Assembly: GCF_000308795.1 (NCBI RefSeq)
Contig: NZ_BAGK01000071.1
Location: 62,001-126,000 of the forward strand
Direction of reading: 5' to 3'
Length of the DNA stretch: 64,000 nt
DNA from: Nocardia thailandica NBRC 100428
GTDB taxonomy: Bacteria > Actinomycetota > Actinomycetes > Mycobacteriales > Mycobacteriaceae
Shown: positions 7,405 to 54,103 of the stretch, piece after piece
Layout of the letters: each line of letters begins with the position of its first letter
Position numbering within the stretch: the stretch's first letter is position 1
The notes under the pieces: model-generated
Told to the model about the DNA's origin: nothing
Database searches by the model: none
Seen by the model: only the letters and a program-made list of their open reading frames with translations
Position numbers and translations under genes: made by a program

Positions 7405-7549
7405 AGACACCCCTTCTCGGAAAACACGGCGCGAACCACGACCTCCCGGACCGGTGCCGCCGTCCCCACCACCCGGATCCCGCCGCGCTTGCACGGCAAT
7501 GCATGTTGTCGATCAATCGGCGGTCGGTGTTACATGGACCACTACTCGG

Positions 7550-13688: not shown

Positions 13689-13885
13689 AGCTCGCCTTCC
13701 CGCGCGGTTGGACCGTTCCGGATCGATCGAACCACAGTGATCCGATGCGCGGCATCGTCCTGAGCGACCGAATGGCCCCGTCTCCGGTTCGGAGTACGCC
13801 AGTGGGGGACCGGCCGTCGCAGTTCGTCACCCCAGAGCAACTGCGTCCGCTACATTGTTGAGCCGCAATGATCTTGGAGGACGCG

Positions 13886-32000: not shown

Positions 32001-32400
32001 TCCCGTGCACACCGGACTTCTTGGCCCGCAGCACATGATCGAGGATCGGGATGAGGAACGACTCCGTCTTGCCGGAACCGGTGCCCGTGGTGACCAGCGT
32101 CGGCAACGGCCTGCGCTGGAACTTGGTCGACAGCCGCTCGAACGCCTTCGCCTGGTGCCCATAGGGCTCGAACGACCGCGGCCACCAGTCCAGATGCATC
32201 CCCCAATTGCCGACGGCCGCCGCGAACGGCAGCCACAACCGCACATACGGACCTTTGAACAACCCGTCCTGCGGGTGACCGATGAAGTCGGTGAGAGCGC
32301 CCTGGGTATCCGGATCGGTCAGCGCGAACGTCGTGGTCAGGTAGTCGGTCAATCCCTCCCGCAGCCGTTCGGCCTGCAGTGTCGGAAGCAGGGCCCCCAC
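26065..32400 (-). CDS. Giant DUF1998-type SF2 helicase, DruE-like
   Basis: A 2111-residue helicase from GTG 32398-32400 with a GAGGAG site. Near the N-terminus is a DEAD/DEAH core: PYGHQAKAFERL (Q-like motif), TGTGSGKT at 105-112, IIYPMNALANDQEQR, and VVLDEFHTYDG at 233-243. After a long insert with Cys pairs (YCRHCGRSGWG, LCPACGTEDG) come the second RecA lobe (TPTLEMGIDIGDL, YLQRVGRAGR) and a C-terminal MZB/DUF1998-type zinc site (CTCTDRLACHKCLLPF). The final 400 residues carry a further domain. Size and layout match DruE of the Druantia anti-phage system; DISARM DrmA/DrmB split similar domains over two genes. It leads an operon with two UvrD-type helicases. The family is firm; the Druantia assignment is tentative because no DruH, DruA-D or DruM/F/G partner is visible. 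Confidence 0.85.
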   Translation of the reverse strand: MGALLPTLQAERLREGLTDYLTTTFALTDPDTQGALTDFIGHPQDGLFKGPYVRLWLPFAAAVGNWGMHLDWWPRSFEPYGHQAKAFERLSTKFQRRPLPTLVTTGTGSGKTESFLIPILDHVLRAKKSGVHGMKALIIYPMNALANDQEQRLARMITGHPELSGVTAGLYTGEQSSGGRTLVSEAGLITDRRLMHDSPPDILLTNYKMLDHMLLRPDRAALWRQSADSLQYVVLDEFHTYDGAQGTDVAMLLRRLGLTIKAHWKPGSPVTEEDRERPLGKITPVATSATLGSKDSSPETMLDFARTVFGETFDAETLIGETRLTAQEWLQRRGAALDRTFSPIEPVVDEAVRELNQVAAQGVSNKRLTAAVLATLYRRTSDIDDTFDRAAADLHRLSEAEMLDLARRHGTIARLLRNAEDACAIEDLAVTALPAHTGERDPARGRKQRERYLGYLFAALSHLRAEVGRSALNVDVHLWLRELSRVDRAATVTPQFRWFDDGKLDDVTTEYFPAVYCRHCGRSGWGVRLAPTGSALDASDEDIRGYHAGGGPRFRALIAAPTEAQFDTPVEGLQWFRLDEREIVDQRPDSDSPELLDGRVLPVLCLSGPEADDHSVKDLCPACGTEDGIRFLGSAIATQLSVALSNLFGDARLDEAEKKALVFTDSVQDAAHRAGFVQARSHSLSLRSTLRSALGDTVNDTQMLTLSELTAAVLKRAGEDPGRRYRLLPPDIVEHDEFTAFWQPDRPAALRRAAARNVARRVQFDIDLEFGLQSRLGRTLELTGSVVAEVDLGAPHRVAQLGAAALERTEHQLAFSAPDTTAVTHWVRGVAERMRTRGAIRHEWLTKYIQRDANRRWVWGGRPKGQGMPAFPKGRPAPAFPAVGARVIPEGFDPITASTSWYARWAAQCLDVSPHEGGFLARALFEVLAEERLVTTTQTEKSLTAYQLTHDAVLVGIPDDAGLAAMRYLLVCDVCQTPTPGSATVIDQLDGAPCLLTRCPGTLNRAPKHDNFYRGLYNTSEMKRVVAREHTSLLPTKTRLEYETEFKTTATNPAAPNVLVATPTLEMGIDIGDLSTVMLGSLPRTVSSYLQRVGRAGRLTGNSLALAFVRGRGEHLPKLGDPTSVIQGDVRPPATFLTAEEILQRQYIAHIIDRLARTSGAEDPGNATNVLSSFDEGTWMGTLLETADEDADLLVDEFLRQFTGTLSEPAAESLRRWATPPGLGEHSGLARLLREAVHRWNRDVDELRHRRTAVDAALPEYEQRANSPAATDEDKRDLRTARGTLRLLSRTIADLTTEHWVGVLERYGVLPNYTLLDDAVTLDVGVTWIDPDTNEYAEDTASYRRGSRVALTELAPGATFYAQGLAVEIDAVDLGGGESAIETWRMCPSCGWVGISHGTDQSPPPIQCPRCHTSAVADISQQLQVVELAKVSAEVRRDESAITDLRDERRRESFTVLTAADIDPGNATKRWFVAEQDFGAEYLRRMDIRWINMGRRTSQGGKRSIAGNTTTGGLFRVCSGCGQLDKIAGQNQPHEHRSWCKYRRAADEKHVREIALARTLRTQAVLLHLPNWLEYDSFAHPSLSAAILLGLRQVIGGSPEHLDVTTITDALHAPNQRALLIHDTVPGGTGYLADFADPGRVWEALAAARRVLRACTCTDRLACHKCLLPFAPPRELDKVSRVTAAKILDDLLGCQEGEPEREAWLASITEETPAKPNGSAESPLEKEFYRAFTERLTTMGATIIEKPGTYGPTATIKLPGAKIRTWQLEPQVLMGNSKPDFQLRTADPDVPLIAIFADGRRFHAVPGKNRVADDTGKRAILRSGGVLVWSFGHDDLVRFQASQPVQPAWFTDKLAKFTIGHANLKPGIFDLLRSDPITQLISFMQDPDREKWSAVGRWLPLIFMLNGRHSGTDEAIAGWALDLLDGKDTQLAPGEHACWSYSAGPLTVTASLRKDRKVIEAVLALDDRDDMLELQEGAAWKEWLRLSNWFGLGDHMVTTHSLLVADSAVPDRGPDSTTAGLTPEWQALYDDTISDGERELLLGLAAVGAPLPELGVETDRGDVIDIGWLEARIGVLLEKPEAAPTMTEQGWTICPADPAELVEALKTNGVM

Positions 32401-32590
32401 GTATGCTCCTCGCGATATCTGCCGGCCGGTGGCCGGGTCCTCTCCCCACCAGAAGTGCCGCGCTGGTGTGTCGGCACGCGGCCGCTGTGTCGGATGCTAG
32501 CCGACCGATATGCCCGGACCTGCTGCGTTCTGGTAGATCCGAGGCTGTGTCGGGCGCGGGTTGGTCTTGATAGCGGACACGGTATCGGTA

Positions 32591-32640
32591 TGTTACCTTG
32601 GCAGTCAAGGGTTGACAAAGTTTTCAACTGCCCGTAGAGA
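32591..32640 (+). promoter_or_regulatory. Promoter of the TIGR04255 operon with shared motif, copy D
   Basis: TTGACA at 32612-32617 and TAGAGA at 32635-32640 are separated by exactly 17 bp. The -35 box is part of TTGACAAAGTTTTCAA (32612-32627), a copy of the shared motif that is nearly palindromic in this case. TGTTACCTT at 32591-32599 repeats an element seen at 10448. The site lies between the divergent giant-helicase and TIGR04255 genes. The rest of the 305-bp region (32401-32705) shows no further gene. Confidence 0.6.
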
Positions 32641-32682
32641 TGCAGCGCACGACTTTTGTTGGCAAGGGCGGGGGAACGCCTC

Positions 32683-32706
32683 CAGTGTGAACTACAGTGT
32701 GAAGTA
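32683..32706 (+). repeat. Tandem 12-bp repeat abutting a start codon
   Basis: CAGTGTGAACTA is followed directly by CAGTGTGAAGTA (11 of 12 identical), whose last base is the A of the ATG at 32706. There is no usual ribosome-binding sequence here, so the repeat replaces it. It could bind a regulator or influence translation. Confidence 0.45.
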
Positions 32707-33527
32707 TGGCGACGCCGAGACATCCTTTCGCTGTGCCGGAACCAGGCAGTGTTCCGTTGCGCGAAGCTCCGCTCGTTCGTGTGATCGGCCAGATCCGCTT
32801 TCCGAGTTTGACTCGGTTCGCTGCGGACGGTGACGAGATCGCCAAAGGGATCGCAGCCGATCTGGCAGAGCGTTACCCCATGATCCAGGTCGGCCAGGAG
32901 GTTGCCGAGATCCTGACAGCCAACGGTGTGGCGCAGGAGCCCAGATCCTCCCGAATCTGGAGGTTGACCAGCACGGACCGAAGCTGGCGAGTCTCGTTCA
33001 GCGGTTCGTTTCTGAGCGTCGACACGACGAGCTATTCACGAAGGGACGACTTCGTCGAGCGCCTCGTGGAGGCGTGGGCCACGTTGTCCGGACATGTCGA
33101 AGTTCCGTTCGTCGAACGTGTCGGAGTTCGATATGTCAATCAGCTGACGGACAAGGCGCGCATCGATCGGATTGCCGAGCTGATTCGTCCCGAAGTGCTC
33201 GGAGTAGCGTTCGCGCATCAACCGGACGAGGCTGCGCTGCAGTCCGCACTGACCGAGGCGCAGTACTCCTTCGCCGACGGTGCCGCTTTCGTTTCTCGCT
33301 GGGGCCTCCTGCCGCCCGGCTTTTCCGTGGATTCCGAGCTGGACGTTTTCGAGCATTCGACCTGGGTCCTCGATATGGACTCCTTCCAAGAATTCGGCCC
33401 GGGCAGCTACGACGGGGGCGACCTGAGTGAGGTCGCGGTGACGATGGCGCGCCGCGGCTACCAGTTCTTCCGGTGGACGGTGACGGCGGAAGGTCTGAAA
33501 GAATTCGGGAGCGACTATGGAGACTGA
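32706..33527 (+). CDS. TIGR04255-family protein
   Basis: A 273-residue soluble protein. The opening PLREAPLVRVIGQIRFPSL, then RSWRVSFSGSFLSVDTTSY, then PFVERVGVRYVNQL is the typical layout of the TIGR04255 family (strand, helix and the GVRYVN segment). The C-terminal half is a beta-rich domain ending YQFFRWTVTAEGLKEFG. The biochemical role of the family is unknown. Members are often found beside small HTH proteins and in defence or toxin-antitoxin contexts. It is first of three genes; the next start overlaps its 3' end by 11 bp. A good promoter with the shared motif lies 66-94 bp upstream. Third-position bias is lower than in neighbours, which suggests more recent acquisition. Confidence 0.8.
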   Translation: MATPRHPFAVPEPGSVPLREAPLVRVIGQIRFPSLTRFAADGDEIAKGIAADLAERYPMIQVGQEVAEILTANGVAQEPRSSRIWRLTSTDRSWRVSFSGSFLSVDTTSYSRRDDFVERLVEAWATLSGHVEVPFVERVGVRYVNQLTDKARIDRIAELIRPEVLGVAFAHQPDEAALQSALTEAQYSFADGAAFVSRWGLLPPGFSVDSELDVFEHSTWVLDMDSFQEFGPGSYDGGDLSEVAVTMARRGYQFFRWTVTAEGLKEFGSDYGD

Positions 33528-34158
33528 TCCCGGGGGAGAGGCAGCGGCACGCCCGGCGAAGCCGGGGCGTCACCGGGCAGCCGGTGCGACGTCGTCCTGG
33601 GCGTCGCGCAACTGGACGGTCGCCGCGCTGACCTTGTACACCTTTCCCACGGTTCTCACGGGAACAACGGCACGGGCAGAGCCACCGCCTCTGATGGATT
33701 CGGTGGTGACCAGTCGGACCGATTTCGGACTGCTGGAACCCACCGCGACGGCCGCGTCCGACGCTGTCGTGCCGGAGGCGGCGCCCGCGGTCGGAAAACG
33801 ATCAGATCGTGAAGAGGTTGCCTGGGTGAAGGACAACTCCGGACTGACCTGGGATCAACTGGGAAAGGTCTTCGGGGTCTCCCGGCGAGCAGTGCATATG
33901 TGGGCGAACGGCGGGCGGTTGAACGAGTCGAACGCCCAACGGCTGCGCGAGTTCTCGGCGATCGTGCAATCACTCGTCGCTGCTGCCCCCGGTGATGGCA
34001 CCGAGGCTACGCCCGAGTCGGTCCGTGCGCGTTTGCTCGAGATCGGGCCGCTGGGCCGCAGTATTGTCGGCGAATTTCGCTACCGGCGCACGAAAGGGCC
34101 GTCCTGGGGCGCACCGTTCGAGCCCGAGTACTTCATTGATGCTGTACGGGAAGGGTAG
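33517..34158 (+). CDS. HTH DNA-binding protein of the TIGR04255 operon
   Basis: A 213-residue protein whose ATG (33517) overlaps the end of the TIGR04255 gene by 11 bp. The first 100 residues are low in complexity, and part is mildly hydrophobic (WTVAALTLYTFPTVLTGTTA). Residues about 100-150 form an XRE-like helix-turn-helix: EEVAWVKDNSGLTWDQLGKV, then VSRRAVHMWANGGRLNESNA, then QRLREFSAIVQ. The C-terminus contains RYRRTKGPSWGAPFEPEYF. Proteins of this type beside TIGR04255 genes are likely regulators or DNA-targeting partners. Whether it binds the operator at 32612 is not known, but that site is the obvious candidate. Confidence 0.75.
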   Translation: METDPGGEAAARPAKPGRHRAAGATSSWASRNWTVAALTLYTFPTVLTGTTARAEPPPLMDSVVTSRTDFGLLEPTATAASDAVVPEAAPAVGKRSDREEVAWVKDNSGLTWDQLGKVFGVSRRAVHMWANGGRLNESNAQRLREFSAIVQSLVAAAPGDGTEATPESVRARLLEIGPLGRSIVGEFRYRRTKGPSWGAPFEPEYFIDAVREG

Positions 34159-34169
34159 GGCAGGGACCA

Positions 34170-35171
34170 GTGGCGCTCGGCGGCGGGGATCTCGATGGAA
34201 GTTCTTCCGGTGTCACAGGTTCCTCGGGAACCGCTGCTCTTGAACAACTGCCGGAACTGGGTGATGCGTGCCGAGCGTGGGCCCAAGGCGATGTCTTCGG
34301 CGGAGTCCCGACATTTGCCTTCGACCACCTCTGGCGGCCGCAGCAACGTAGTGAGCAGTCCGCTGCGATCGTGAGCCAGACCTGTGATGCTTCGCTGCCT
34401 AATCGGCGGATTGTTCAGATCGCACCGGTGGTGGAACTGACTGGCTCGATCGGGAAAGAGGCGTCGGCCGGTAAGCGTCCTCGGTATGTTCCACTGTCCG
34501 GCCTCGGACCGAGCCACTTCGTCGACCTCGAAGTGATCGTGTCGGTGGACAAGGCCGCATTACTGCAGAAGCCGCGGCGGCGTGGCCTGGTGAACGATCA
34601 GCACCGGCGGGAATTTGCGTTCGCGGTCGCGCGAAAGTTCGGGCGATTCGCGTTCCCCGACGAGGTGGTGCGCTGCTTCGAGCCGCTGGTCCACCTGCTG
34701 CAGAGGAAGGCACGCAAGGACACTACCTCGCTCGGCAAGGTGCTGGCAGGAGTACATTCGATCCGTATCCACTGTGAGGACTGGAGCAGAACGCCGTACG
34801 AGTTGACGCTGATCGTGCTCCTGGAGGCCGGTATTCTGCCGGCCGGTCCTGATGACTTCGACGAAGTTGTGGATCTTTCGTTTCTCGAAGGCCCTGCGGA
34901 AGAGCCGGTTTCGCTTCGCGTCGACAAGTATGTCGACTATCTGGCAAGCGCCTACCGCACCGAGGGCGAACGGCAAGCATGCTGGTACCTGCTCGCAGAC
35001 GGGTGGGCCGCACAATGCGAAAACGCAGCGTGGCTGGCCAGCTCGGACAGCATCATCGGCTCGGTTCGAGCCGAGGTCGACAGCGTGGACATCTTCCCCT
35101 ATTCCCGAGCGATGATCACCGAGGGGCTCGATCTCGACTACTTGTGCGACTCTCGAAAGACATTGACATAG
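34170..35171 (+). CDS. Uncharacterised protein with VSQTCD motif, third gene of the TIGR04255 operon
   Basis: A 333-residue protein from GTG 34170, 11 bp after the previous stop. The N-terminal part contains AAIVSQTCDASLPNRRIVQI, the signature of a family of small beta-rich proteins commonly annotated as hypothetical in defence regions, followed by RYVPLSGLGPSHFVDLEVIV. The C-terminal half is helical (RREFAFAVARKFGRFAFPDE; KVLAGVHSIRIHCEDW). No catalytic site is evident beyond the conserved Cys-Asp of the motif, which could be nucleophilic but is untested. Codon use is less GC-biased than the flanking operons. It converges with the TerD-HIRAN gene; the 205 bp between them (35172-35376) show nothing else clear. 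Confidence 0.7.
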   Translation: MALGGGDLDGSSSGVTGSSGTAALEQLPELGDACRAWAQGDVFGGVPTFAFDHLWRPQQRSEQSAAIVSQTCDASLPNRRIVQIAPVVELTGSIGKEASAGKRPRYVPLSGLGPSHFVDLEVIVSVDKAALLQKPRRRGLVNDQHRREFAFAVARKFGRFAFPDEVVRCFEPLVHLLQRKARKDTTSLGKVLAGVHSIRIHCEDWSRTPYELTLIVLLEAGILPAGPDDFDEVVDLSFLEGPAEEPVSLRVDKYVDYLASAYRTEGERQACWYLLADGWAAQCENAAWLASSDSIIGSVRAEVDSVDIFPYSRAMITEGLDLDYLCDSRKTLT

Positions 35172-35376
35172 CGGTCATTCTGATGCCGGGTCTGTTGTCG
35201 TCGATATCATCCCCTGATGAATAGGCGGACTGGCCGCTGTAGTTGGCGGCTGGATGTTCTGGGGGCGCCCTTCCCGCTCTCCGCAGGCACAGGCTGTCGT
35301 CGAGCCGGCGGGCGAATTCGGACCTCGCCTGTTCGATCGGGTGTGGGGTGTCAGCAGGGGCGGTGAGGGGCGGGTC

Positions 35377-37314
35377 TCATGGTTCGACGGGGGTCCAGGA
35401 AGTGGCGAGTTGGATGTGTCGGCCGTGTCGGGAGATTTCGGGCCAGGTAGCGAATTCGGCGATGGGGAGGTGACGGGCGGCGGGGGTGGTGATCGTGGTG
35501 AACCAGTCGCCGTCGGGGTCGGCGGGGGTGCTGATGTTCAGTGCGGCGGCGTAGTTGTTGCCGACGGTGAAACGGATGGTGCTGAGGTGCTGGCGGACCC
35601 GGGGATCGCCGGGGCCCGCGATCGGGGTGAAATCTGTTGCTATGTCGAACTTCCGGATGCTGCGGGCGAGGTCGGGCCAGGTCATGTGCTGGTCGATCGT
35701 GCCGCCGGGGTTGGACGCGGTGGTTTCCCAGTGGGTGCCCCGGCGGACCGCGAGGTAGGTGTAGCCGCTTCGGTCGAAGCGGATGAGGGAACCGTCCGGT
35801 GGCTCCGGGGGTATCGGGCGGGCTACCGGCTGGACTAGGGGCAGTGGCTCGAGCAGGGCGGCAGCGGGGGCGAGGTCGTAGGCGAGGGGGTCGGGGCGTT
35901 CGGGAATGAGGGCGGGGCAGGTGATGGGCGGTCCGTCGAGAACCTGGGCGGAGGCTTCGTTGGCTTTGATGCCGTCGATGCGGACCTCCGCGGCGACCGC
36001 GGAACCGGTGATGTCGCCCCAGCAGGCGGTGAGCAGGCCGCGGTTCTCCAGATGCTGGATCATCGGGGCGAAGCGCTGGCTCATCTGCGGGGTCAGCTGG
36101 CCGACGCGCTGGTTGCCGACCCGGACCTCGACGTACGGTTTGGCCCGACCGGACTCGGGTGTGACGACGTGCAGCGTGACCAGCAGGATGCCGTGCCCGC
36201 TGGGGGTGACGTATGTGCTGAGTACGTCGAAGTGGTCCTGCTCCTTGGTCACCTGGACGATGGCCGAGCGCGGCAGGATGGTGTACGCGTCTGTCGGGGG
36301 CGGGTTCAGCGGGGCCGCATCGAAGGGCTGATCGAGGCGCAGATGCACAGAGGCGTAGGACGTGGTTTCGTCCCATCCCTCGTACTCCCGGTCGGAGATG
36401 CGGCTCGAGGTGGCCGGGATGTATCCCGAGGCGATGATGCGCCGGATCGGGCCCGCCCAGGCACGGGCTGTTCCGTCGTCCAGGTAGCCGATCGTGCGGC
36501 CTTCGGCGCGTACGGAGATCCCCCACGGGCCACGGGGTCCGGTCGGCTCCGGGATCAGTTCGACATCGGGGGTGAGTTCGGCTCGGTCCTCGGGGAGGTC
36601 GGCGGGGAACAGGCTGCGGATCGCAGGCAGGAACTCGTCGGTGACGGTCAGTTCGTGGTTGTACCAGCTTCGTGACTCGCCCCAGAGTCGGTAGTGCGAG
36701 ACCGCCGCACCGGGTGCCATCGGTCCGGTGGATCGGGGGACGGGTTCGTGCTGCGGGTGGTGGGTGGGCGCGGCATCGCCGGAATCGGTGACATCGACAC
36801 CGAAATCGACTGCCAGACCGGCGAGTCCGGAATCCCAGCCTTGGCCCACCGCACGGATCTTCCAGGCGCCCGCGCGGCGGTACACCTCCCCGAACACGAA
36901 GGCACGCTCGGTGGTCGCGTCCGCTGTCGTGTAGTCGGCGACCGGAGTGCCCGATCCGTCGGTGACCGTGAAGGTCAGTGCGCCGAAGGAACCGAAGGTG
37001 CCCTCCGCGACGCTGCCGGCGACGGCCACCGTGTGCACGTCATTGGGAAGCGCGGACAGGTCGATGGAGATCCGCGCCCGCGCGCCCGATCCAGTGGTGG
37101 TGACGCCCTCGAACCGCACCGCTCCGTTCGCGGACCGCGGCTGGTTGTAGAAGACGAAATCCGCGTCGGAGCCGACCTTTCCGTCAGCGCCGAGCAGGAG
37201 CGCGGAGGCGTCGACCTCTGTCGTGGTGAGGTCCCAGCCGATGACCGCGTCGATGCGCGAGGTGCCGGTCGGCAGAGGGACGTTCTGGCCGCGCGACAGC
37301 TTCTGGGGAGTCAC
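35377..37314 (-). CDS. TerD domain protein with two HIRAN-like segments
   Basis: A 645-residue protein beginning at GTG 37312-37314, 22 bp after the methylase stop; a longer in-frame extension overlaps the methylase end and is not preferred. Residues 1-175 are a complete TerD domain (LSRGQNVPLPTGTSRIDAVI, SDADFVFYNQP, TADATTERAFVFGEVYRR, WKIRAVGQGWDSGLAG). Residues about 220-330 (GISVRAEGRTIGYLDDGTAR, then GPIRRIIASGYIP) and 365-455 (YVEVRVGNQRVGQLTPQMSQ, then FAPMIQHLENRG) resemble HIRAN domains, which bind 3' ends or damaged DNA in SNF2-type helicases. The last 180 residues are unassigned. As third gene after an SNF2 helicase and an adenine methylase, it may deliver substrate recognition to them. 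The HIRAN calls rest on pattern only. Confidence 0.75.
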   Translation of the reverse strand: MTPQKLSRGQNVPLPTGTSRIDAVIGWDLTTTEVDASALLLGADGKVGSDADFVFYNQPRSANGAVRFEGVTTTGSGARARISIDLSALPNDVHTVAVAGSVAEGTFGSFGALTFTVTDGSGTPVADYTTADATTERAFVFGEVYRRAGAWKIRAVGQGWDSGLAGLAVDFGVDVTDSGDAAPTHHPQHEPVPRSTGPMAPGAAVSHYRLWGESRSWYNHELTVTDEFLPAIRSLFPADLPEDRAELTPDVELIPEPTGPRGPWGISVRAEGRTIGYLDDGTARAWAGPIRRIIASGYIPATSSRISDREYEGWDETTSYASVHLRLDQPFDAAPLNPPPTDAYTILPRSAIVQVTKEQDHFDVLSTYVTPSGHGILLVTLHVVTPESGRAKPYVEVRVGNQRVGQLTPQMSQRFAPMIQHLENRGLLTACWGDITGSAVAAEVRIDGIKANEASAQVLDGPPITCPALIPERPDPLAYDLAPAAALLEPLPLVQPVARPIPPEPPDGSLIRFDRSGYTYLAVRRGTHWETTASNPGGTIDQHMTWPDLARSIRKFDIATDFTPIAGPGDPRVRQHLSTIRFTVGNNYAAALNISTPADPDGDWFTTITTPAARHLPIAEFATWPEISRHGRHIQLATSWTPVEP

Positions 37315-37336
37315 AGGGGGCGATGTCCTTCGATGG

Positions 37337-40300
37337 TTACCGGTGGAGCTGGTTTTCGGGGGCGGCGGCGAGGCGGGAGAAATGTTCGTGGGCGATGCGC
37401 ATGTCTCGTTCTCTGTCGACACCGGTGAACGGTGCTACGTAGGTGATGCCGTCGACGGTGAGGTCGGAGGTGGGTAGGGAGCCCTTCTTGCGGTACTCGG
37501 AGGCGAGTTTGGTGGGGAGCTGGCGGCCGGTGGCGTCGTAGAGGGCTTCGCGCTCGTACTTCTGGAGGACGGGGAATTGGGTGCGGTAGATGGTGAGGAG
37601 TTCGTCGGCGGTGATGTCGAGCATTACCGCGACGATGGCATCAATTTCCACGAGGGCCAGTCGGCGATCAGCATCCGACCGGAGCGGTGTGCTCCAATTC
37701 CACTCGGGTCCTATATTCCCCAGCTCACCCCCAATCGGATACCTGTTGTCGACAGCAACCCATGTATCGGTTTGCCAGCTGGCGCGATAGAGATCGGACC
37801 AAAGGTCGGCGTACGGTGCTGTCAGGCAGTTCAGTCGGAGCGTGCGGAGGTTGAGATGTTCTTCAAGGGGGTTCTCACGGATGTGAGGAAGTTGTCGCAC
37901 AAGTCCATGCTTGAGCTCGGTGGCGCCACTTGCCTTGATCAGGAAATCTGCGGGAATTGACGACCAGATTCCGGATGCAACTACAAGGTCCGCGTTGGTG
38001 GGAAGCAGGGCGGTGAGGACAGTGCCGACGAAGGCGGGTCCCGGTGGAATCAGCGCTGAATGGAGGGTACGCACAGTCGCTGAGTCGGCCATGCGGCGCC
38101 AGGCGAGGCGGAAGTAGGACGAGCTCGGTTCGTTGTTCCACCTCGGGTAGGCGGCCCGGTATTCCGGGAGGGGCCGGGCGACCTGGTAGTTGGTTCTCGG
38201 GATGAAATTCTCAGGGATCGTCGTGAGATCGATGGTGGAGTAGTCGACGTTGCTACGCATAGTCGGGTTGCCCTGCTGGTAGGCCGGGCAGGCGACGGTG
38301 AGGTGGGGGCCTTGGAGGATGGTGTATTCCAAATTCTGAGGCACGGCGGATCGAGACTCGAAGTGGCCGAGTTTGCGGTCAGTCGTTTCATTCCATCCGA
38401 AGGTCCACTGGAACCCGGTTTCGCCAAGCCTCGGTGCGGCGGCGATCTTGTCGAGCACAGCTGCGCTCGCTCGGTTGACCGGATACATCATGCGAGCCTC
38501 GGTCGCTGGTGTGCCCGGCTCGTCGATCAAGGTGCACCAGCTGTGGAGAACCGCCTCGGTAACTTCGATAATGCGTTCAGGGTGTGGGCGCAGGTCCCAG
38601 TCGCCGTTGGGGTCCTTTACTCCGGGAACGATGGTCGTGCTGTCGAATCCTGCTCGGCGGGCTTGGAGAGATCGTGTGGGGACATCGGGGTGGTAGAGCG
38701 CCGATCCCTGAAGAAAATGCACGGCTGATTCATTGCCGTACACGTGTACTCCGTACTGCCGAGTGTTATTTATCTCGGAGAAGAGTTTGAGTTCGTTCCG
38801 AAATTGCCAGTGTCGCCGGAGTCGGCGGTAGCAGGCTCGTCGGAGCGCCTGTGCTCGCGCTTCGGTGAAATGGCTTTCCGGGTGGATCAGAGAAATTATG
38901 CCCCGAGGTGAAGACGAACGCCACGTCCGCTCCATGAAACATCGATACAGGTCCGGGCGCAAACCTGCGAGTACCGGGTGGTTTGGGGTCGATGCCAGGT
39001 GCTCGGTCTGTCCCGCTTGTGCTGCACGCTCGGTGAGGAGAATCGCGACCGCCGGGTCTTCGGACAGAATCTCAGCGGCTTTCGCCTTCTTGGCCGACTC
39101 CGACGGCTTGTGGGCCAACTGCCACCAGGGATCGAACTCGGCCAGAACCCCAGCTTCATCCCAATCCAGCCGAACCCACGGCGGATTACCGACCTGCAGG
39201 TCGAACCCACCCCGAGCGAACACCGGCCCGAAGTCCAGTTCCCAGTGGTGGAAACCCTGCTCGGCCGAGATGGCGGCAGCGGTATGCAACCAGGGGAACT
39301 CCGCGAGTGCGGAGTCGATGGATTTGACCTGGGCGAAGGTGCGGTCGGTGTCCTCGGCGACGTCGAGTTCGAACCAGCTCAGGTCGGAGGCGATGCTGGT
39401 TTGGCCGTACTTCTCGAATTTGCCTGCTTTGGGCGTGGTTCCGAGGAGGGCTTCGAGGCCGCCGATCCACTGGTCCCAGTCCGGGGCGTCGACGGTGCCG
39501 GTGACGGGCCAGGACCACAGCGCGCACCAGGCATCCATGACTCGGCGGACGCGCTGGTAGGAGCCGTTGTGGTCGTGCAGGACGGCTTCGATCTGTTCGC
39601 GGGTGACAGCGGGTTCGCGGCGGGCGGGCTGCTCGCCCCACAGCTGGAGGTCGCGGCGGATCGCGGATTCGGCGATGGTGAGACGGCGGAGGGCGAAGTC
39701 CCACAGGGTTTCCACGCGTTGAGCGAGGGAGGCGAGGCGTTTGACGATGTCCTTGCTCGGGGACTTGCGGATGTCGTTGCGCCACAGCCGGAGTTCCTCG
39801 CGGCGCTCGGGAGCGTAGGTCTTGGCTTCGGGGGTGTCGACGACGGCGCCCCAGCCCTGGGCGGGGAGCAGGAAGTGATGGATGCCGGTGCCGATCTCCT
39901 CGCCGAGGGGGACATCCTTGGGAACTGTGGTGAGCCACGCCTTCTTGGCCAGTTCGCCGGGCAGGTAGACGGCGCGGCGGGCGCCGATGAGGGAGTTGCC
40001 GCGGCGCAGGTGGAGGCCGAACCAGGGGGCCTGGAGACCGGCGACCATGGTGTCGAGCCAGAGGGAGATCTCGGCGAGTTCCACGGCCGTGGCGTTGAGG
40101 TCGACGCCGTAGACCTGGTGGAGGGCTATGTGGGCCTTCACCTTCTGGAGTTCGACAGGGTACTGGTCGGCGTCGATGAGTTCGCCGCGCTGTTTCTGTT
40201 TGCGCTCGAGATATGCGGCGGCCAGCTGGCGGACTGCCTCGATGGCGAACGCACCGGAGCCCAGGGCGGGCTCGCAGATGGTGTAGGACAGGATGTCCTC

Positions 40301-41944
40301 GGGGGTGGTGTCGTCGTCGAGAAGTTCTTCGAGGGCCTGGGAGACGACGAACTTCGTGAGGACTTCGGGGGTGTAGTAGGACGCGGACTGCTGGCGTTCG
40401 CGGCCGGCCAGACGGAAGACGAACGTGCCCTTCTCGTGGACGACCGGCTTGAGCTCGTGGGTGTTCGGGTCCTCGGCACGGACGAAGTCGGATTCGGAAA
40501 GGTGGTCCGCGCGATGGACGGGGACGACCCAGGAACCTTTCTCCGGGTTGCCGTCCTTGGCCACTTCGTAGAGGTCCTCCTCGGCGAAGAAGCCGGTGTA
40601 GGACATCAGGCCCTCGTAGACGGCACCGAGCTGGTTGATGCCGAGTTCGGCGTAGCTGATGAACCCTCGGTCGGCGCCCTTGCGGGATGTGGATTCCTTG
40701 GTCAGCAGGAGGTGCGCGAGGACCTGCTGGGTGGCCTCGTTGCCGAGCCCGACTTCATCGATGAGCGCGGTCGCCTTCGGGGAGAAGAGGTCGGCTCGCA
40801 GAGGATTGAACTGGAGGCCGGGGGCGGAATCGTCGAGCCCACCGTCTCGGACCGGGGGAGTGTGGCCGTGTTCCACGAGGTCGAACAGCCGGGCGAGGGA
40901 CTCGTAGAGGTGGGTGCCGGTGCGGGCGTGGTGGGAGACGAGTTCGGTGAGAGTGAGCTCGCGGAGCCGGTCGAGGCCGTAGCCCTGCTCGTATTCGGTG
41001 GCGCCGGTCGGCAGGACCTGCATTTCCGGGGATGCCTCGGCATAGAGCAGGAACAGAATCCGGTAGAGGAAGCGCAGTGATTGTTTGGCGAGTTCGTTAC
41101 CGTCGATCCCTTCCAGCGGCAGGTCGCGCTCGCGGCGGCGGCGCACCACTTCGTTGGCGATGATCTCGATCGACAGGCGGATGCCTTCGCGGAGATCTTT
41201 GGAGACGCCGACAGTGTGCTTCACCGAGTCCTCGAGCACACCCGTCCACCAGATGTTGCCGTCCGGGTCGGGGCGCAGCGACTGATGGCCGAAAATGGCG
41301 GCGGCGCGGTCGATTTCGCCGCCGCGGGCGTCGTGGCGGCGCTCGGCGACGACGAGCAGGTCGAGGGCGAGGTAGCGGCCCTCGGCCCAGCGTTCGGCCT
41401 CGGCGAGCAGGAGCCAGCGGCCGGCCTGGAGCACGACGAACGACGGCGGGGTGTCGGAGCGGAAGGCGGCCGAGACCGTCTTGGAGGCCGATACGAGGGG
41501 CTTGCCGTCCTCGGTGGCAGGAGTGATGAGGGTGCCGGTGTCGGGGGAGAGCAGGTCTTCGATCGACTCGACCGGAGCTGCTTGCAAGAACAGGACGTCG
41601 GAGGTGCCCGCCAGCTGGGCGTCCGGGATGGTCAGGTCGGTGCCCGCGCGTTCGGCGGTGAACGCGGTCAGTTCGCCCGGGTAGCCGAAGATTTCGCGGA
41701 TCTGGGCGTGGGCCTTCGGGGCTGCCCCGGGGTTCTCGGCGAGGGAGCCGAGCAGAGCATGCAGGTCGCCCGCGGCGGACAGCAGAGAACTGCGCACTGT
41801 CGTGCGGCCCTCTTTCGCCTCGGCGTCCCAGGCCTTGCGCAGTTCCATGACCTTGCCGTGGAAGGACTCCTTCACCGAGTCGGTGGTGAAGTAGTGTTCG
41901 CTGATCCAGTCCTCGCCGACGACGATGGAATCGAAGGAGGCCAC
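37337..41944 (-). CDS. Eco57I-type N6-adenine DNA methylase, DrmMI/PglX-like
   Basis: A 1535-residue protein from GTG 41942-41944, 4 bp after the helicase stop. The core has ASYYTPEVLTKF near 521, motif I EPALGSGAF at 558-566 (AdoMet), VYGVDLNATAVELAEISLW, a long insert, and NPPW at 920-923 (N6-adenine catalysis). The N-terminal 500 residues include a Trp-rich alpha/beta region (IWWTGVLEDSVKHTVGVSKD) but no clear PD-(D/E)XK active site; the C-terminal 500 are probably target recognition. Size and motifs match large methylases of DISARM class 1 (DrmMI), BREX (PglX) and type ISP/IIL systems. With the SNF2 helicase directly upstream, DrmMI is the closest match. No cutting subunit is obvious in this operon, so modification or helicase-linked exclusion is more likely than classic restriction. 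Confidence 0.85.
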   Translation of the reverse strand: MASFDSIVVGEDWISEHYFTTDSVKESFHGKVMELRKAWDAEAKEGRTTVRSSLLSAAGDLHALLGSLAENPGAAPKAHAQIREIFGYPGELTAFTAERAGTDLTIPDAQLAGTSDVLFLQAAPVESIEDLLSPDTGTLITPATEDGKPLVSASKTVSAAFRSDTPPSFVVLQAGRWLLLAEAERWAEGRYLALDLLVVAERRHDARGGEIDRAAAIFGHQSLRPDPDGNIWWTGVLEDSVKHTVGVSKDLREGIRLSIEIIANEVVRRRRERDLPLEGIDGNELAKQSLRFLYRILFLLYAEASPEMQVLPTGATEYEQGYGLDRLRELTLTELVSHHARTGTHLYESLARLFDLVEHGHTPPVRDGGLDDSAPGLQFNPLRADLFSPKATALIDEVGLGNEATQQVLAHLLLTKESTSRKGADRGFISYAELGINQLGAVYEGLMSYTGFFAEEDLYEVAKDGNPEKGSWVVPVHRADHLSESDFVRAEDPNTHELKPVVHEKGTFVFRLAGRERQQSASYYTPEVLTKFVVSQALEELLDDDTTPEDILSYTICEPALGSGAFAIEAVRQLAAAYLERKQKQRGELIDADQYPVELQKVKAHIALHQVYGVDLNATAVELAEISLWLDTMVAGLQAPWFGLHLRRGNSLIGARRAVYLPGELAKKAWLTTVPKDVPLGEEIGTGIHHFLLPAQGWGAVVDTPEAKTYAPERREELRLWRNDIRKSPSKDIVKRLASLAQRVETLWDFALRRLTIAESAIRRDLQLWGEQPARREPAVTREQIEAVLHDHNGSYQRVRRVMDAWCALWSWPVTGTVDAPDWDQWIGGLEALLGTTPKAGKFEKYGQTSIASDLSWFELDVAEDTDRTFAQVKSIDSALAEFPWLHTAAAISAEQGFHHWELDFGPVFARGGFDLQVGNPPWVRLDWDEAGVLAEFDPWWQLAHKPSESAKKAKAAEILSEDPAVAILLTERAAQAGQTEHLASTPNHPVLAGLRPDLYRCFMERTWRSSSPRGIISLIHPESHFTEARAQALRRACYRRLRRHWQFRNELKLFSEINNTRQYGVHVYGNESAVHFLQGSALYHPDVPTRSLQARRAGFDSTTIVPGVKDPNGDWDLRPHPERIIEVTEAVLHSWCTLIDEPGTPATEARMMYPVNRASAAVLDKIAAAPRLGETGFQWTFGWNETTDRKLGHFESRSAVPQNLEYTILQGPHLTVACPAYQQGNPTMRSNVDYSTIDLTTIPENFIPRTNYQVARPLPEYRAAYPRWNNEPSSSYFRLAWRRMADSATVRTLHSALIPPGPAFVGTVLTALLPTNADLVVASGIWSSIPADFLIKASGATELKHGLVRQLPHIRENPLEEHLNLRTLRLNCLTAPYADLWSDLYRASWQTDTWVAVDNRYPIGGELGNIGPEWNWSTPLRSDADRRLALVEIDAIVAVMLDITADELLTIYRTQFPVLQKYEREALYDATGRQLPTKLASEYRKKGSLPTSDLTVDGITYVAPFTGVDRERDMRIAHEHFSRLAAAPENQLHR

Positions 41945-41948
41945 TGGC

Positions 41949-44828
41949 TTACCGGTCCTTTCCCGGGACGATCACGAGCAGCGGACGCACGAGCTGCTGG
42001 GTGGGAGCGAGGGATTCGGCGATGCTCTGCTCCCTGCTGACGCGCTGCGCGTATTTGCCGACCTTCTTGCGCTGGGCGCCGAACAGCTCGAGCTGGCCGG
42101 CGCTGGAATGCCAGCGTTCGGCGCGGAGACGCCACTGCGCCAATCGCTCGTTGGCGGAGCGCTCCTGGTGATCGAGGACGATCTTCATCGACTGGGTGGC
42201 CTGATCGACGGCGACGGGGATCAGCGGCTGGAAGCGCCCGGCGTCCTGGATCGGACCCGGGTTGGGGGTGTCGGGCTTCAATCCGGTTGTCGTGAGCAGG
42301 AAGCCGAGATTCTCGAGGGGTCTCGGGATGGCGAAGGCGGGTCGCTCGGGGTCGGGGAACTCGACGGTGGAGAACACCCGGGAGATGAGCTGGCCGCGCC
42401 GGTTCATCAGCGTGCCCATCAGCAGCACGGTGACCGCGGGGACATCGCCACGGATGGCGAAGATCTGATTGCGGCCCAGGGCCGCGAGCGCGCGGTCGCC
42501 GGCCCAGTCCAGGACCGGATGCAGGGGTCCGAGGAAGTGCGCTTCCGGCCAGGTGGTGTTGTTGATGCCCTTGCCTTGTCGGGCGGCACGGAGCTGGGCA
42601 TTGCCCGCCTGCTCGGTGGTGGCGAGTTTGAGATGTTCGTCGATGCGGCCGTGTTCTCGGTAGCTCTGAGGCAGGTGGGCGAGGCGCTGGCGGAGGTCGC
42701 GGGGTGGGACGAGTTCGGCGATGCCGTGATTGGCGTGGACGGTCCAGCCGACGCCACCCGCGGCGGGTGCGGCGTGCGGGACGTCGTTGTAGGCGGCGCG
42801 CAGGGCTTCGTCGAGGAACGTGACGTCGTCGCGGTAGAGGCTCTGGCGGGGAAGCTCGGGCAGGGGCTCGGGCTCGTCGGTGTCGAGCTGGGCGAAGAAC
42901 GAGTCGAAGTCGTCACCGTCGAGGACGTCGTCGACGGTGCGGACCTGCTCGTCGAGGGTGGACTTACCCGCCAGCACGTCGCGGATCGCCGATTCCTCGT
43001 CGCCCACACTGTGTTTGCCCATCAGAGACGCGACATCGCCGAGGGCGGAATGGGCCTGGTTCTCGCGTTCGAGGAGCCTTGACAGCACGCGCAGGTCGCC
43101 GGAGAAATCGGGATCGGACGGTTCCAGGATCAGCGAGGAGATCACCGGCGGGAACTGCTGGCCGTAACGGTCGACGCGGCCGTTGCGCTGTTCGATGCGG
43201 ATCAGCGACCACGGGATGTCGTAGTGGATGAGGTGGTGGCACTGGGCGTGCAGGTTGACGCCCTCGGAGGCGACATCGCCGGTGACCAGGACACGGACGG
43301 GGGAGCTCTCGAGTTTGAAACTGTCGACGATCTCCTGCTGTTCGATGTCGGAGAGGCCGCCGTGCAGCATCGCGATGTTCTCCGTTTTCAGGCCGAGCGC
43401 GGCGGGAAGCAGGTCGGTGAGCCATTTCAGCGTGGCGACGCGCTCGGCGAATACCACGGCGCGGGTGGTCGATTTCGCGCCGATGCCGATCTCCTTCAGC
43501 CGGGCGATGAGCGCGCCCTGCTTGCCCGCGGACTCGGTGAACGACTTGTCGTTCAGGTCGGCCAGGGTGTTCAGGGCGGCGAGCTCGGTGTGCTGCTCCG
43601 GGGTGTGCGGGCCGCCCTCGTCCCGGAGCTTCGCACGGCGCTGGTCGATCGACTCGGCGAGTGCGGCGGGGGAGGAGAGGAAGGCTTTGGCCAGGGTCCA
43701 GGGGAACAAGGACTTGGTTTCGCCGGAATACGGCGAACGGCCGGACTCGGGGTGCAGCCAGGTCCGGGACAACTCGCGGGCTACCGCATCCTCCGGTGCC
43801 GACGGCTGGACCAAGCGGTGCACGGGGTCGGCGCGTTCGGCCCAGTCGCTACCGACTTCCGCCGCGACTTCGTCGTGGTGGCGGTGTCGGCGGATGAGCA
43901 GGTTCTGCACGTCGGCCTTGGTGAAGGTGCCGTCGGCGGCGACGGCGGTGGGATCGAGCAGGCGCAGGAGTTCGGCGAAGGACTCCTCACGGCCGTTGTG
44001 CGGGGTGGCCGACGCGAGGATCAGGGCTTCGGTGTTGGGGGCCAGGATGCGCGCGAGTTCATTGTTCTGGGTGCCGACGTTGGTGAGGTTGTGGGATTCG
44101 TCGATGACGACGGCGTCCCAGGGCTGGCGTTCGAGGTGTGCCTTGTAGCGGGGGCTCTTGAGGGTGTCGATCGAGATGATCGCGCGCTTGTAGTAGGTGA
44201 ACGGGTTACGTGTGGCGGGGAGCTTCTGGCGGACCTTCTGGATGCCCGCGGAGTCGAGGCGCACGAACGGCAGTGCGAAACGGCACCAGAGTTCGTGCTG
44301 CATCTGCTCCAGGACGTGTTTGGGGGTGACGATGAGAATGCGTTCACCCCGGCCACGGCGCACCAGCTCCGACAGGATCATGCCGATCTCGAGCGTCTTG
44401 CCAAGGCCCACCGCGTCGGCCAGCAGGATACGGGGCCGGATGTGCTGGGGGTCGAGGGCCTTGGCGACCGCGGCGCGCTGGTAACCGAGGGAGTCGGCGA
44501 GCATGTGGGTGGCGACGGTGAGCTGCTGGTCGCCGTAGGGGAAGGGAGTTTTGCGCAGGAGGGCTTCGAGCCAGAGCCGGGAGTCGCGGTAGTTCGAGGA
44601 GCCGTCGGGGACGACGACTGCTTTCGCGGGATCGCGGACCTCGATGTCGTCGAGGCTGTCGTAGAAGGTCGCGGTGGTGTCGGCGACGAGTTCGGACAGG
44701 CCGCGAACGCGCAGGAGCCAGCCGTCGGAGCCCTGTTCGGCCGAGGTGACCAACCATTCTTCGTCGCGGACGATGACGACAGAGCCGGGGGCGACGTTCA
44801 GCGGAGGGCGCTCGACGGCGGAGGTCAT
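41949..44828 (-). CDS. SNF2-family helicase, DrmD-like
   Basis: A 959-residue SNF2/RapA-type ATPase from ATG 44826-44828, with an AGGAG site upstream. The N-terminal 90 residues form a small beta domain (PGSVVIVRDEEWLVTSAEQG). Motif I is LLADAVGLGKTLEIG at 135-149, motif Ia LIVTPKHVLEQMQHEL, motif II VVIDESHNL near 240-248, motif III LILASATPHNG; in the second lobe GVNLHAQCHHLIHYDIPWSL and RIEQRNGRVDRYGQ (motifs V and VI) are intact. The C-terminus is helical. DISARM class 1 starts with the same pairing of an SNF2 helicase (DrmD) and a large adenine methylase. Here DrmA, DrmB and DrmC do not follow; a TerD-HIRAN gene does. First gene of the operon, with copy E of the shared motif upstream. 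Confidence 0.87.
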   Translation of the reverse strand: MTSAVERPPLNVAPGSVVIVRDEEWLVTSAEQGSDGWLLRVRGLSELVADTTATFYDSLDDIEVRDPAKAVVVPDGSSNYRDSRLWLEALLRKTPFPYGDQQLTVATHMLADSLGYQRAAVAKALDPQHIRPRILLADAVGLGKTLEIGMILSELVRRGRGERILIVTPKHVLEQMQHELWCRFALPFVRLDSAGIQKVRQKLPATRNPFTYYKRAIISIDTLKSPRYKAHLERQPWDAVVIDESHNLTNVGTQNNELARILAPNTEALILASATPHNGREESFAELLRLLDPTAVAADGTFTKADVQNLLIRRHRHHDEVAAEVGSDWAERADPVHRLVQPSAPEDAVARELSRTWLHPESGRSPYSGETKSLFPWTLAKAFLSSPAALAESIDQRRAKLRDEGGPHTPEQHTELAALNTLADLNDKSFTESAGKQGALIARLKEIGIGAKSTTRAVVFAERVATLKWLTDLLPAALGLKTENIAMLHGGLSDIEQQEIVDSFKLESSPVRVLVTGDVASEGVNLHAQCHHLIHYDIPWSLIRIEQRNGRVDRYGQQFPPVISSLILEPSDPDFSGDLRVLSRLLERENQAHSALGDVASLMGKHSVGDEESAIRDVLAGKSTLDEQVRTVDDVLDGDDFDSFFAQLDTDEPEPLPELPRQSLYRDDVTFLDEALRAAYNDVPHAAPAAGGVGWTVHANHGIAELVPPRDLRQRLAHLPQSYREHGRIDEHLKLATTEQAGNAQLRAARQGKGINNTTWPEAHFLGPLHPVLDWAGDRALAALGRNQIFAIRGDVPAVTVLLMGTLMNRRGQLISRVFSTVEFPDPERPAFAIPRPLENLGFLLTTTGLKPDTPNPGPIQDAGRFQPLIPVAVDQATQSMKIVLDHQERSANERLAQWRLRAERWHSSAGQLELFGAQRKKVGKYAQRVSREQSIAESLAPTQQLVRPLLVIVPGKDR

Positions 44829-54042: not shown

Positions 54043-54103
54043 CGCACGTCGCTGACCGGGGGATACCGTCATACGGTTGGTCTGTTGTGTGAGGAGAGAT
54101 CGG

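What the first reader, a model, noticed from the sequence alone, without database searches (positions are those of the whole stretch)
35377..44828. SNF2 helicase, giant adenine methylase and TerD-HIRAN protein in one operon
The first two genes match the DrmD/DrmMI opening of class 1 DISARM, but the third product is a TerD domain joined to two HIRAN-like segments rather than DrmA, DrmB or DrmC. Gaps of 4 and 22 bp indicate one transcript. HIRAN domains recognise DNA ends, so a TerD protein that senses DNA and works with a methylase and translocase would be a new role for TerD.
Basis: partly seen in the sequence, partly recalled or inferred. Interest (0 to 1): 0.82.

Follow-up and report, generated by a model that had tools for sequence, protein, structure and literature searches.

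The report
TerD–HIRAN gene inside ARMADA defence locus
The first two genes belong to a recently described bacterial anti-virus system called ARMADA type II, whose other parts lie further along the window, and the TerD–HIRAN gene is an optional extra that sits inside that system in some Nocardia bacteria and may help it.

Summary
The three genes and the 4 and 22 bp gaps are real. The "DISARM-like opening" is armA–armB of ARMADA type II (Bell et al. 2025). All four types align over most of their length with the E. coli ATCC 8739 system. In 29 relatives armB stands beside armA; 0 of 29 stretches hold the TerD gene.

The third protein is TerD, two HIRAN folds (by structure prediction) and a beta-rich tail. 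Its TerD lacks the canonical calcium loop. HIRAN1 has lost the EPxNPxD Asn and Asp in 8 of 8 TerD-fused proteins, while the Asn is kept in 15 of 15 TerD-less relatives, so DNA-end sensing is not supported.

Of 150 Nocardia genomes, 26 match its C-terminal part. Twelve of these also match armD; in 9 the gene lies inside or against the ARMADA locus, at different positions and from two subfamilies. Fourteen have no armD match.

Verdict: a known system carrying an apparently undescribed, recurrent but dispensable TerD–tandem-HIRAN accessory. ARMADA identity is near certain; a functional role is about even odds against independent cargo.

The parts
41949..44828 (-). armA: RapA/SNF2 helicase, ARMADA type II
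   Evidence: SNF2-rel_dom; 36% to E. coli ArmA over 801 columns; DAVGLGKT and DESH motifs
37337..41944 (-). armB: PglX/type IIG-like DNA adenine methyltransferase
   Evidence: Eco57I, N6_Mtase; PADLOC REase_MTase_IIG 1365 bits; 35% to E. coli ArmB over 1381 columns; NPPW at 920
35377..37314 (-). TerDx: TerD-HIRAN1-HIRAN2-beta-rich tail, likely start GTG 37314 (frame open to 37422)
36802..37302 (-). TerD domain of TerDx, canonical calcium loop missing
   Evidence: Pfam 142 bits; VIA Z 20.8 to 3ibz; loop compared
36310..36687 (-). HIRAN1 (residues 246-371 of the 681-aa frame), EPxNPxD motif lost
   Evidence: VIA Z 7.9 to 3k2y and 5.2-6.2 to HLTF HIRAN entries; next unrelated row 3.0; motif
35932..36276 (-). 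HIRAN2 (residues 383-497)
   Evidence: VIA Z 8.1 to 3k2y, 6.3-6.6 to HLTF HIRAN entries
35383..35790 (-). C-terminal beta-rich tail (residues about 545-680), fold not identified
   Evidence: predicted strands, pLDDT of 10-residue blocks mostly 66-87, last block 57; a relative without TerD or HIRAN pair exists (L048)
32706..35171 (+). three opposite-strand genes (32706-33527, 33517-34158 with weak HTH, 34170-35171), cargo in the armB-armC interval
26065..32400 (-). armC: YprA/DruE-like helicase with MZB domain and Vsr-like C-terminal region
   Evidence: DEAD, Helicase_C, MZB; 28% to E. coli ArmC over 2224 columns, better than to DruE; C-terminal region aligns at 1e-07
23855..26068 (-). armD1: UvrD-like helicase
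   Evidence: UvrD domains; 31% to E. coli ArmD over 735 columns
21601..23841 (-). armD2: second UvrD-like helicase
   Evidence: UvrD domains; 32% to E. coli ArmD over 736 columns

Best explanation
The locus is a complete ARMADA type II defence system (armA, armB, armC, and armD in two copies) whose armB-armC interval has been opened and now holds cargo, first of all a TerD-tandem-HIRAN gene (TerDx) likely co-transcribed with armB. Shown: identity and completeness of the ARMADA genes, the tandem HIRAN fold by prediction, and the recurrent placement. Inferred: ArmB marks host DNA by adenine methylation while ArmA, ArmC (with its Vsr-like nuclease region) and ArmD act on unmarked invading DNA; TerDx is an optional accessory, with TerD as an assembly/scaffold domain and the HIRAN barrels as a docking surface (protein or nucleic acid, not specifically a DNA end) that tunes or targets the helicases. 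ARMADA identity about 0.95; tandem HIRAN about 0.9; co-transcription about 0.8; a functional accessory role rather than plain cargo about 0.5.
For: Matches of all four protein types over most of their length to the E. coli ATCC 8739 locus, the kind of system that Bell et al. name and test (PMC12458937). armA-armB pairing in 29 loci, with armC directly behind armB (<= 300 bp) in 18 of 29 (for L056 the script missed armA, which one search shows in L042). Motifs kept: ArmA DAVGLGKT/DESH, ArmB NPPW, ArmC DEFH, ArmD GGAGTGKT/DEAQD. TerDx starts 22 bp behind armB. Of 12 Nocardia genomes with both a TerDx-C-terminus match and armD, 9 have them together: in the armB-armC interval (G000, G286, G265) or directly before armC (G288, armB on another contig); between armD1 and armD2 (G121, G231, G240); after armD (G255); beside an armD remnant (G174). 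The family tree needs at least two changes of ARMADA linkage, which occurs in the TerD-fused and in a TerD-less subfamily.
Against: 14 of 26 Nocardia genomes with the match have no armD match and 15 of 26 no armB match; 8 of the 13 TerD-fused copies read are in genomes without either. By genome, co-occurrence is not significant (12 both, 14 family only, 41 armD only, 83 neither; Fisher one-sided p = 0.15; the armD count includes distant matches near 35% identity). Among the loci read, only the window has it next to armB. The tested E. coli system works with four genes. Three cargo genes share the interval in the window, and G286 and G265 have about 31 and 39 kb between armB and armC. The binomial value for 9 of 12 (5e-15) is against random placement, not against the clustering expected in a defence island.
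Confidence: 0.5

Rival explanations
1. TerDx is independent cargo: a stand-alone stress or defence gene that landed in the armB-armC cargo slot and has no working link to ARMADA.
For: Matches without armD in 14 of 26 Nocardia genomes; position differs between loci; the slot holds other genes elsewhere; TerD is fused to many unrelated partners in this genome (HNH, RNase_T-BRCT, vWA-TerF, AIM24).
Against: Same strand and 22 bp behind armB; a HIRAN gene between armD1 and armD2 sharing a boundary base with armD2 in three species; two subfamilies placed in ARMADA loci.
Confidence: 0.38
2. One reading: SNF2 + methylase + TerD-HIRAN form one three-gene DISARM-like system in which HIRAN senses DNA ends.
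For: Tight spacing; HIRAN folds; DrmD/DrmMI similarity in PADLOC.
Against: 0 of 29 armB stretches carry TerDx, armC follows armB instead; NCBIfam DrmD 334 bits under its cut-off of 610; HIRAN1 Asn/Asp motif lost in 8 of 8 TerD-fused proteins.
Confidence: 0.02
3. TerDx acts as a brake or immunity-type regulator that restrains the ARMADA helicases/nucleases in the host, so its gene is kept close to them (a special case of the accessory reading).
For: Both ligand sites look altered (no calcium loop, no EPxNPxD in HIRAN1) while the folds persist, as in a protein turned to protein-protein contact (inference); PMC11706625 reports that HIRAN proteins beside HipA were predicted to be antitoxins (passages).
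Against: No direct evidence of interaction; 0 of 29 armB stretches of relatives carry it.
Confidence: 0.1

Closest known systems
ARMADA type II (Bell et al. 2025, PMC12458937; sections 5-9 and 26 read, plus passages)
   Same: ArmA, ArmB, ArmC and ArmD homologues in the same order, aligning with the E. coli ATCC 8739 copy over most of their length
   Different: armD is doubled, armB-armC interval is open (4.9 kb) with TerDx and three opposite-strand genes; the paper's main text has no mention of TerD, HIRAN or Nocardia
DISARM class 1
   Same: SNF2 helicase related to DrmD, methylase related to DrmMI
   Different: NCBIfam DrmD cut-off not reached; the YprA-like helicase is one 2111-aa protein carrying MZB and is DruE/ArmC-like, not split DrmA + DrmB
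HIRAN domain (HLTF, Rad5, lp_0118)
   Same: fold of two segments; Pfam HIRAN hits in 17 of 23 family members
   Different: Asn and Asp of EPxNPxD replaced in HIRAN1 of 8 of 8 TerD-fused members; no such motif seen in the HIRAN2 stretch of the 23 rows printed
TerD (KP-TerD 2kxt, SCO 3ibz)
   Same: fold, Z 15.2-20.8; 142 bits
   Different: GDNxTGxGxGDDE loop of the solved TerDs missing
TerD-dependent systems with McrBC-like RM (mentioned in PMC3710099, passages; original not held)
   Same: TerD near restriction genes
   Different: there McrBC-like RM; here ARMADA, and TerD is fused to tandem HIRAN

Membership tests
ARMADA type II | ArmA: BrxHII/RapA-like SNF2 helicase | tested here: met
   36% over 801 columns to E. 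coli ArmA, E 1e-143
ARMADA type II | ArmB: PglX-like methyltransferase with NPPW | tested here: met
   35% over 1381 columns; NPPW at 920
ARMADA type II | ArmC: YprA-like helicase with DUF1998/MZB and C-terminal Vsr-type nuclease | tested here: met
   28% over 2224 columns, MZB, C-terminal region aligns at 1e-07; nuclease activity not tested
ARMADA type II | ArmD: GajB-like UvrD helicase with N-terminal RelE-like domain | tested here: inconclusive
   UvrD part met; alignment to E. coli ArmD includes the N-terminus from residues 11-16, but the RelE fold was not tested by itself
ARMADA type II | gene order armA-armB-armC-armD | tested here: met
   same order and strand in the window, with 4.9 kb of extra genes between armB and armC
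ARMADA type II | anti-phage activity | not testable with these tools
   bench test only
DISARM class 1 | DrmD at its curated cut-off | tested here: not met
   334 bits against 610
DISARM class 1 | separate DrmA, DrmB and DrmC | tested here: inconclusive
   the helicase is DruE/ArmC-like; no DrmB or DrmC among the up to 25 families shown for each of 12 proteins scanned, lists cut at 25
TerD (PF02342) | profile match and fold | tested here: met
   142 bits against cut-off 25.3; Z 20.8 to 3ibz
TerD (PF02342) | calcium loop as in the solved TerDs (role recalled) | tested here: not met
   GDNxTGxGxGDDE absent from the window protein and from 7 of 7 other TerD-fused relatives in A4; the pattern is also missing in 7 of the other 12 TerD proteins of this genome, so its loss is common
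HIRAN (PF08797) | profile match | tested here: not met
   no hit for the window protein itself; 17 of 23 family members hit at E <= 1
HIRAN (PF08797) | fold | tested here: met
   residues 246-371 and 383-497 by VIA-align; the seven top rows are HIRAN, Z 5.2-7.9 against 3.0 for the next; Foldseek alone gives HIRAN first but only at E 0.013
HIRAN (PF08797) | Asn/Asp of the HLTF-type DNA pocket | tested here: not met
   0 of 8 TerD-fused, against Asn 15 of 15 and Asp 12 of 15 TerD-less; HLTF alignment, E 0.024; NN90,91AA mutant in the PMC4666394 legend

The most novel reading that the evidence does not exclude
TerD-tandem-HIRAN proteins are true ARMADA accessories: a HIRAN pair repeatedly recruited into ARMADA loci, fused once to a calcium-blind TerD and stripped of its end-binding motif, now a protein-docking regulator of the ARMADA helicases. 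That would be a concrete, testable molecular role for a TerD domain in phage defence.
Probability: 0.25. Interest if true: 0.72.

Novelty: new variant of a known kind. Interest (0 to 1): 0.5.

Why it matters
It shows that the 'DISARM-like' pair is part of ARMADA type II in Nocardia, and names a recurrent accessory that the describing paper's main text does not mention. TerD's molecular role is still unclear (recalled); a TerD protein tied to a defence system with a tested E. coli relative offers a direct assay. The family also gives a natural comparison: HIRAN with and without its DNA-pocket motif, with and without TerD.

Tried and rejected
DISARM class 1 membership: rejected on the DrmD cut-off and on helicase kinship. 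A stand-alone SNF2-methylase-TerD system: rejected, 0 of 29. A genome-level link between the family and armD: not significant (p = 0.15). Phage or plasmid carriage of the tandem-HIRAN part: no plasmid match at E <= 0.001, no relative confirmed in viral contigs; among phages, weak hits to Propionibacterium phage E6 (two records) and one Nostoc phage; E6 gp33 has a Pfam HIRAN domain and no TerD hit. Neighbours of TerDx: 10 proteins from five loci (L084, L085, L086, L087, L090) gave AAA_16/NACHT-like, AAA_21 and metabolic enzymes or nothing, no common partner; L086 is an ARMADA locus, and L085 is the same contig region as G286, whose armC lies further out.

Papers: 'TerD' with 'HIRAN' as word starts, 49 papers, noise; 'TerD' with 'DISARM' 0; 'TerD domain' with restriction, methyltransferase, helicase 1, listing only; 'DrmD','UvrD','DruE' 0; 'HIRAN','phage','defense system' 4; 'TerD' with 'anti-phage' 4; Druantia/SNF2/UvrD set 5; six-term Nocardia set 0; HLTF HIRAN set; 'antiviral defense array' 3, of which I read sections of PMC12458937 and saw the other two in the listing only. 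No supplement was read.

Rows left out: 29 of the 30 other genomes with an armB match were read; G049, cut at a contig end, was not. Alignment A4 uses 22 of the 32 loci (L097, a near-copy, and L107-L115, weak or partial, dropped). In the tree G287 was lost because my cut was out of frame and gave no hit, and G304 is partial. Of the 26 Nocardia genomes with a match, G218, G201, G289, G282 and G241 were not read around the match; G164 and G289 match only the tail. In '9 of 12' G218 and G289 (match and armD on different contigs) and G164 (tail fragment about 5 kb before armA) count as not together.

Full report
What is there. It holds the three genes described, on the minus strand. SNF2 helicase 41949-44828, methyltransferase 37337-41944 and TerDx 35377-37314 (frame open to 37422) are separated by 4 and 22 bp. 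GC3 of 0.88, 0.81 and 0.84 marks all three as coding.

The rest of the system. Searching 201 genomes of the family with the methyltransferase gave 31 genomes with a match, the window's own included. I took stretches of up to about 20 kb around the locus in 29 of the other 30. The SNF2 gene is next to the methyltransferase in 28 of 29 by script; in the last, L056, the script missed it, but L042 of the same genome shows it. A ~2100-aa MZB helicase follows within 300 bp in 18 of 29, at 0.7-4.7 kb in 7, and is not seen in the stretch in 4 (one of these, L062, ends at a contig end); UvrD genes follow where the stretch reaches them. TerDx-like genes occur in 0 of the 29 stretches. In the window the same MZB helicase (26065-32400) and two UvrD helicases (23855-26068, 21601-23841) lie on the same strand, behind TerDx and three plus-strand genes.

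Naming it. PMC12458937 (bioRxiv 2025; sections 5-9 and 26 and passages read) describes ARMADA type II: ArmA RapA-like helicase, ArmB PglX-like methyltransferase, ArmC YprA-like helicase with a Vsr-type nuclease, ArmD UvrD with a RelE-like N-terminus, in strict order. I fetched the E. coli ATCC 8739 locus and compared: ArmA 36% over 801 columns, ArmB 35% over 1381, ArmC 28% over 2224, ArmD 31-32% over 735-736. The window helicase scores higher with ArmC (631 bits) than with the Druantia III helicase (123 bits for its best piece). Motifs whose mutation hit the E. coli NCTC 12900 system (ArmB NPPW, Walker motifs of ArmA, ArmC and ArmD) have counterparts: DAVGLGKT/DESH, NPPW, DEFH, GGAGTGKT/DEAQD; my pattern for the ArmC Walker A found nothing in either species. 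The window thus holds a complete ARMADA type II with doubled armD. Activity is not shown.

The third protein. TerD covers residues 41-207. The AlphaFold2 model (23 sequences, mean pLDDT 82.9, pTM 0.57) matches TerD 3ibz at Z 20.8 and, at 383-497, HIRAN structures at Z 8.1 (3k2y) and 6.3-6.6 (HLTF entries). A model of residues 231-520 (26 sequences, pLDDT 89.2) matches HIRAN at 246-371: Z 7.9 and 5.2-6.2, the next unrelated row being 3.0. Foldseek alone ranks HIRAN first for that piece but only at E 0.013, shows no HIRAN in the 50 rows listed for the whole protein, and the family profile reaches HLTF at E 0.024. The leading VIA rows are one family, and Pfam HIRAN hits 17 of 23 family members, so I accept the fold. 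The tail (545-680) is beta-rich and unidentified.

Altered sites. The profile of the family aligns EPdNPhD with HLTF DPNNPYD. In alignment A4 the Asn is kept in 15 of 15 TerD-less proteins and the Asp in 12 of 15; in the 8 TerD-fused proteins, the window's included, both are gone in 8 of 8. HLTF with the two asparagines at 90-91 changed to alanine is a studied mutant (PMC4666394 legend). HIRAN of yeast Rad5 binds ssDNA without preferring a free 3'-OH (PMC7804152 passages). The TerD loop GDNxTGxGxGDDE, present in the solved TerDs, is absent from all 8. Against reading much into that: by a strict pattern the loop is present in only 5 of the 13 TerD proteins of this genome that I compared, so loss is common. 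That this loop binds calcium is recalled; the title of 2kxt mentions calcium binding. So 'a DNA-end sensor' is not supported for this protein.

Where the family sits. The genome-contig scan gave 32 loci: 7 with TerD (L084-L090); no armA/armB-like gene in the flanks held (up to 10 kb; one weak SNF2 match, 24%, in L113); 4 of 32 beside armC/armD (L086, L096, L097, L099), and L085 with an ArmD-like gene about 5 kb away; 7 of 32 beside or one gene from a giant DUF4011-like helicase-nuclease (L091, L093, L094, L095, L098, L102, L106). In 150 Nocardia genomes 26 match the TerDx C-terminal part at E <= 1e-8 (G164 and G289 match only the tail) and 53 match armD at E <= 1e-40 (the lower ones, near 35% identity, may not be ARMADA); 12 have both. 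Nine of the 12 have them together. G000, G286 and G265 have it between armB and armC. In G288 it lies directly before armC, with armB on another contig. In G121, G231 and G240 it lies between armD1 and armD2, in G255 after armD, and in G174 beside an armD remnant. armB is found in 11 of the 26; armA was not checked in all of them. TerD is fused in 13 of the 21 copies whose surroundings I read, and 8 of these 13 are in genomes without armD or armB matches. By genome the association is weak (p = 0.15), whereas placement, when both occur, is far from random; defence-island clustering alone could explain part of that. The tree (31 rows; G287 dropped) groups the TerD-fused proteins as one clade (100/99), so the fusion probably happened once, and ARMADA linkage needs at least two changes.

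Mechanism. Shown: gene content, order, predicted folds, placement. Known from the E. coli relative: non-abortive protection that needs all four Arm genes. Inferred: ArmB marks self DNA and the helicases act on unmarked DNA; TerDx is an optional docking or regulatory protein. Plain cargo is nearly as likely, because more than half of the copies live without ARMADA and because the armB-armC interval of this clade also takes up other genes: of the 11 loci with armB identity of 60% or more (window included), armC is in the stretch in 7, at 1.7-4.9 kb in six of them (L063 counted from the end of its armB, 3.3 kb; the script's 961 bp counts from an armB fragment) and at 53 bp in L061. Below 60% identity the interval is 300 bp or less in 17 of 19.

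Odds.

Novelty. The core is known since 2025. The TerD-tandem-HIRAN accessory is not mentioned in that paper's main text (TerD 0, HIRAN 0; supplement not seen), and the searches listed under Tried and rejected found no other paper on it. TerD near restriction systems was already proposed (PMC3710099 passages). Hence: new variant of a known kind.

Noticed in passing
window 5467-7494 (-): Second TerD protein without the calcium loop; its C-terminal part holds an EVK-type stretch like PD-(D/E)XK nucleases (by eye). Two Rhodococcus plasmid proteins share its C-terminal part (by eye) and lie near ThiF-JAB-DUF6602 genes; a weak Tox-REase-7 hit (0.034) in one of them.
   Followed up: partly
window 61783-63999, continuing on the contig (L018): Large protein (1123 aa read across the window edge) followed by a helicase somewhat nearer Druantia III DruE than ArmC: a Druantia III-like pair near ARMADA, as in E. 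coli ATCC 8739; the partner has no detectable match to E. coli DruH.
   Followed up: partly
window 32400-37337: The armB-armC interval is 300 bp or less in 17 of 19 loci below 60% armB identity but open in most loci nearer the window, and spans about 17-40 kb in G255, G121, G286 and G265: it looks like a cargo slot inside an operon.
   Followed up: partly
window 12538-14064 (-): A TerD gene appears broken: Pfam TerD pieces lie in different open frames at neighbouring places.
   Followed up: no
window 47353-54042 and 54077-59365 (+): Two giant AAA_11/MTES_1575 helicase-nucleases (the first matches PADLOC PDC-S37 at 1151 bits). Distant relatives of the first stand next to or near tandem-HIRAN genes in Mycobacterium-group and Rhodococcus genomes.
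   Followed up: partly
own genome, L010, L011, L012, L013: TerD fused to HNH, to RNase_T-BRCT, to AIM24 and to vWA-TerF.
   Followed up: no
L139:1864-3462 (Propionibacterium phage E6 gp33): A HIRAN protein gene beside repressor and antirepressor genes of a phage with an integrase, a place typical of phage accessory genes (recalled); top structural match of TerDx in the viral library.
   Followed up: partly
L113:9848-12889: The HIRAN-like match lies inside a 1013-aa protein with a weak SNF2 match: possibly a HIRAN-SNF2 fusion.
   Followed up: no
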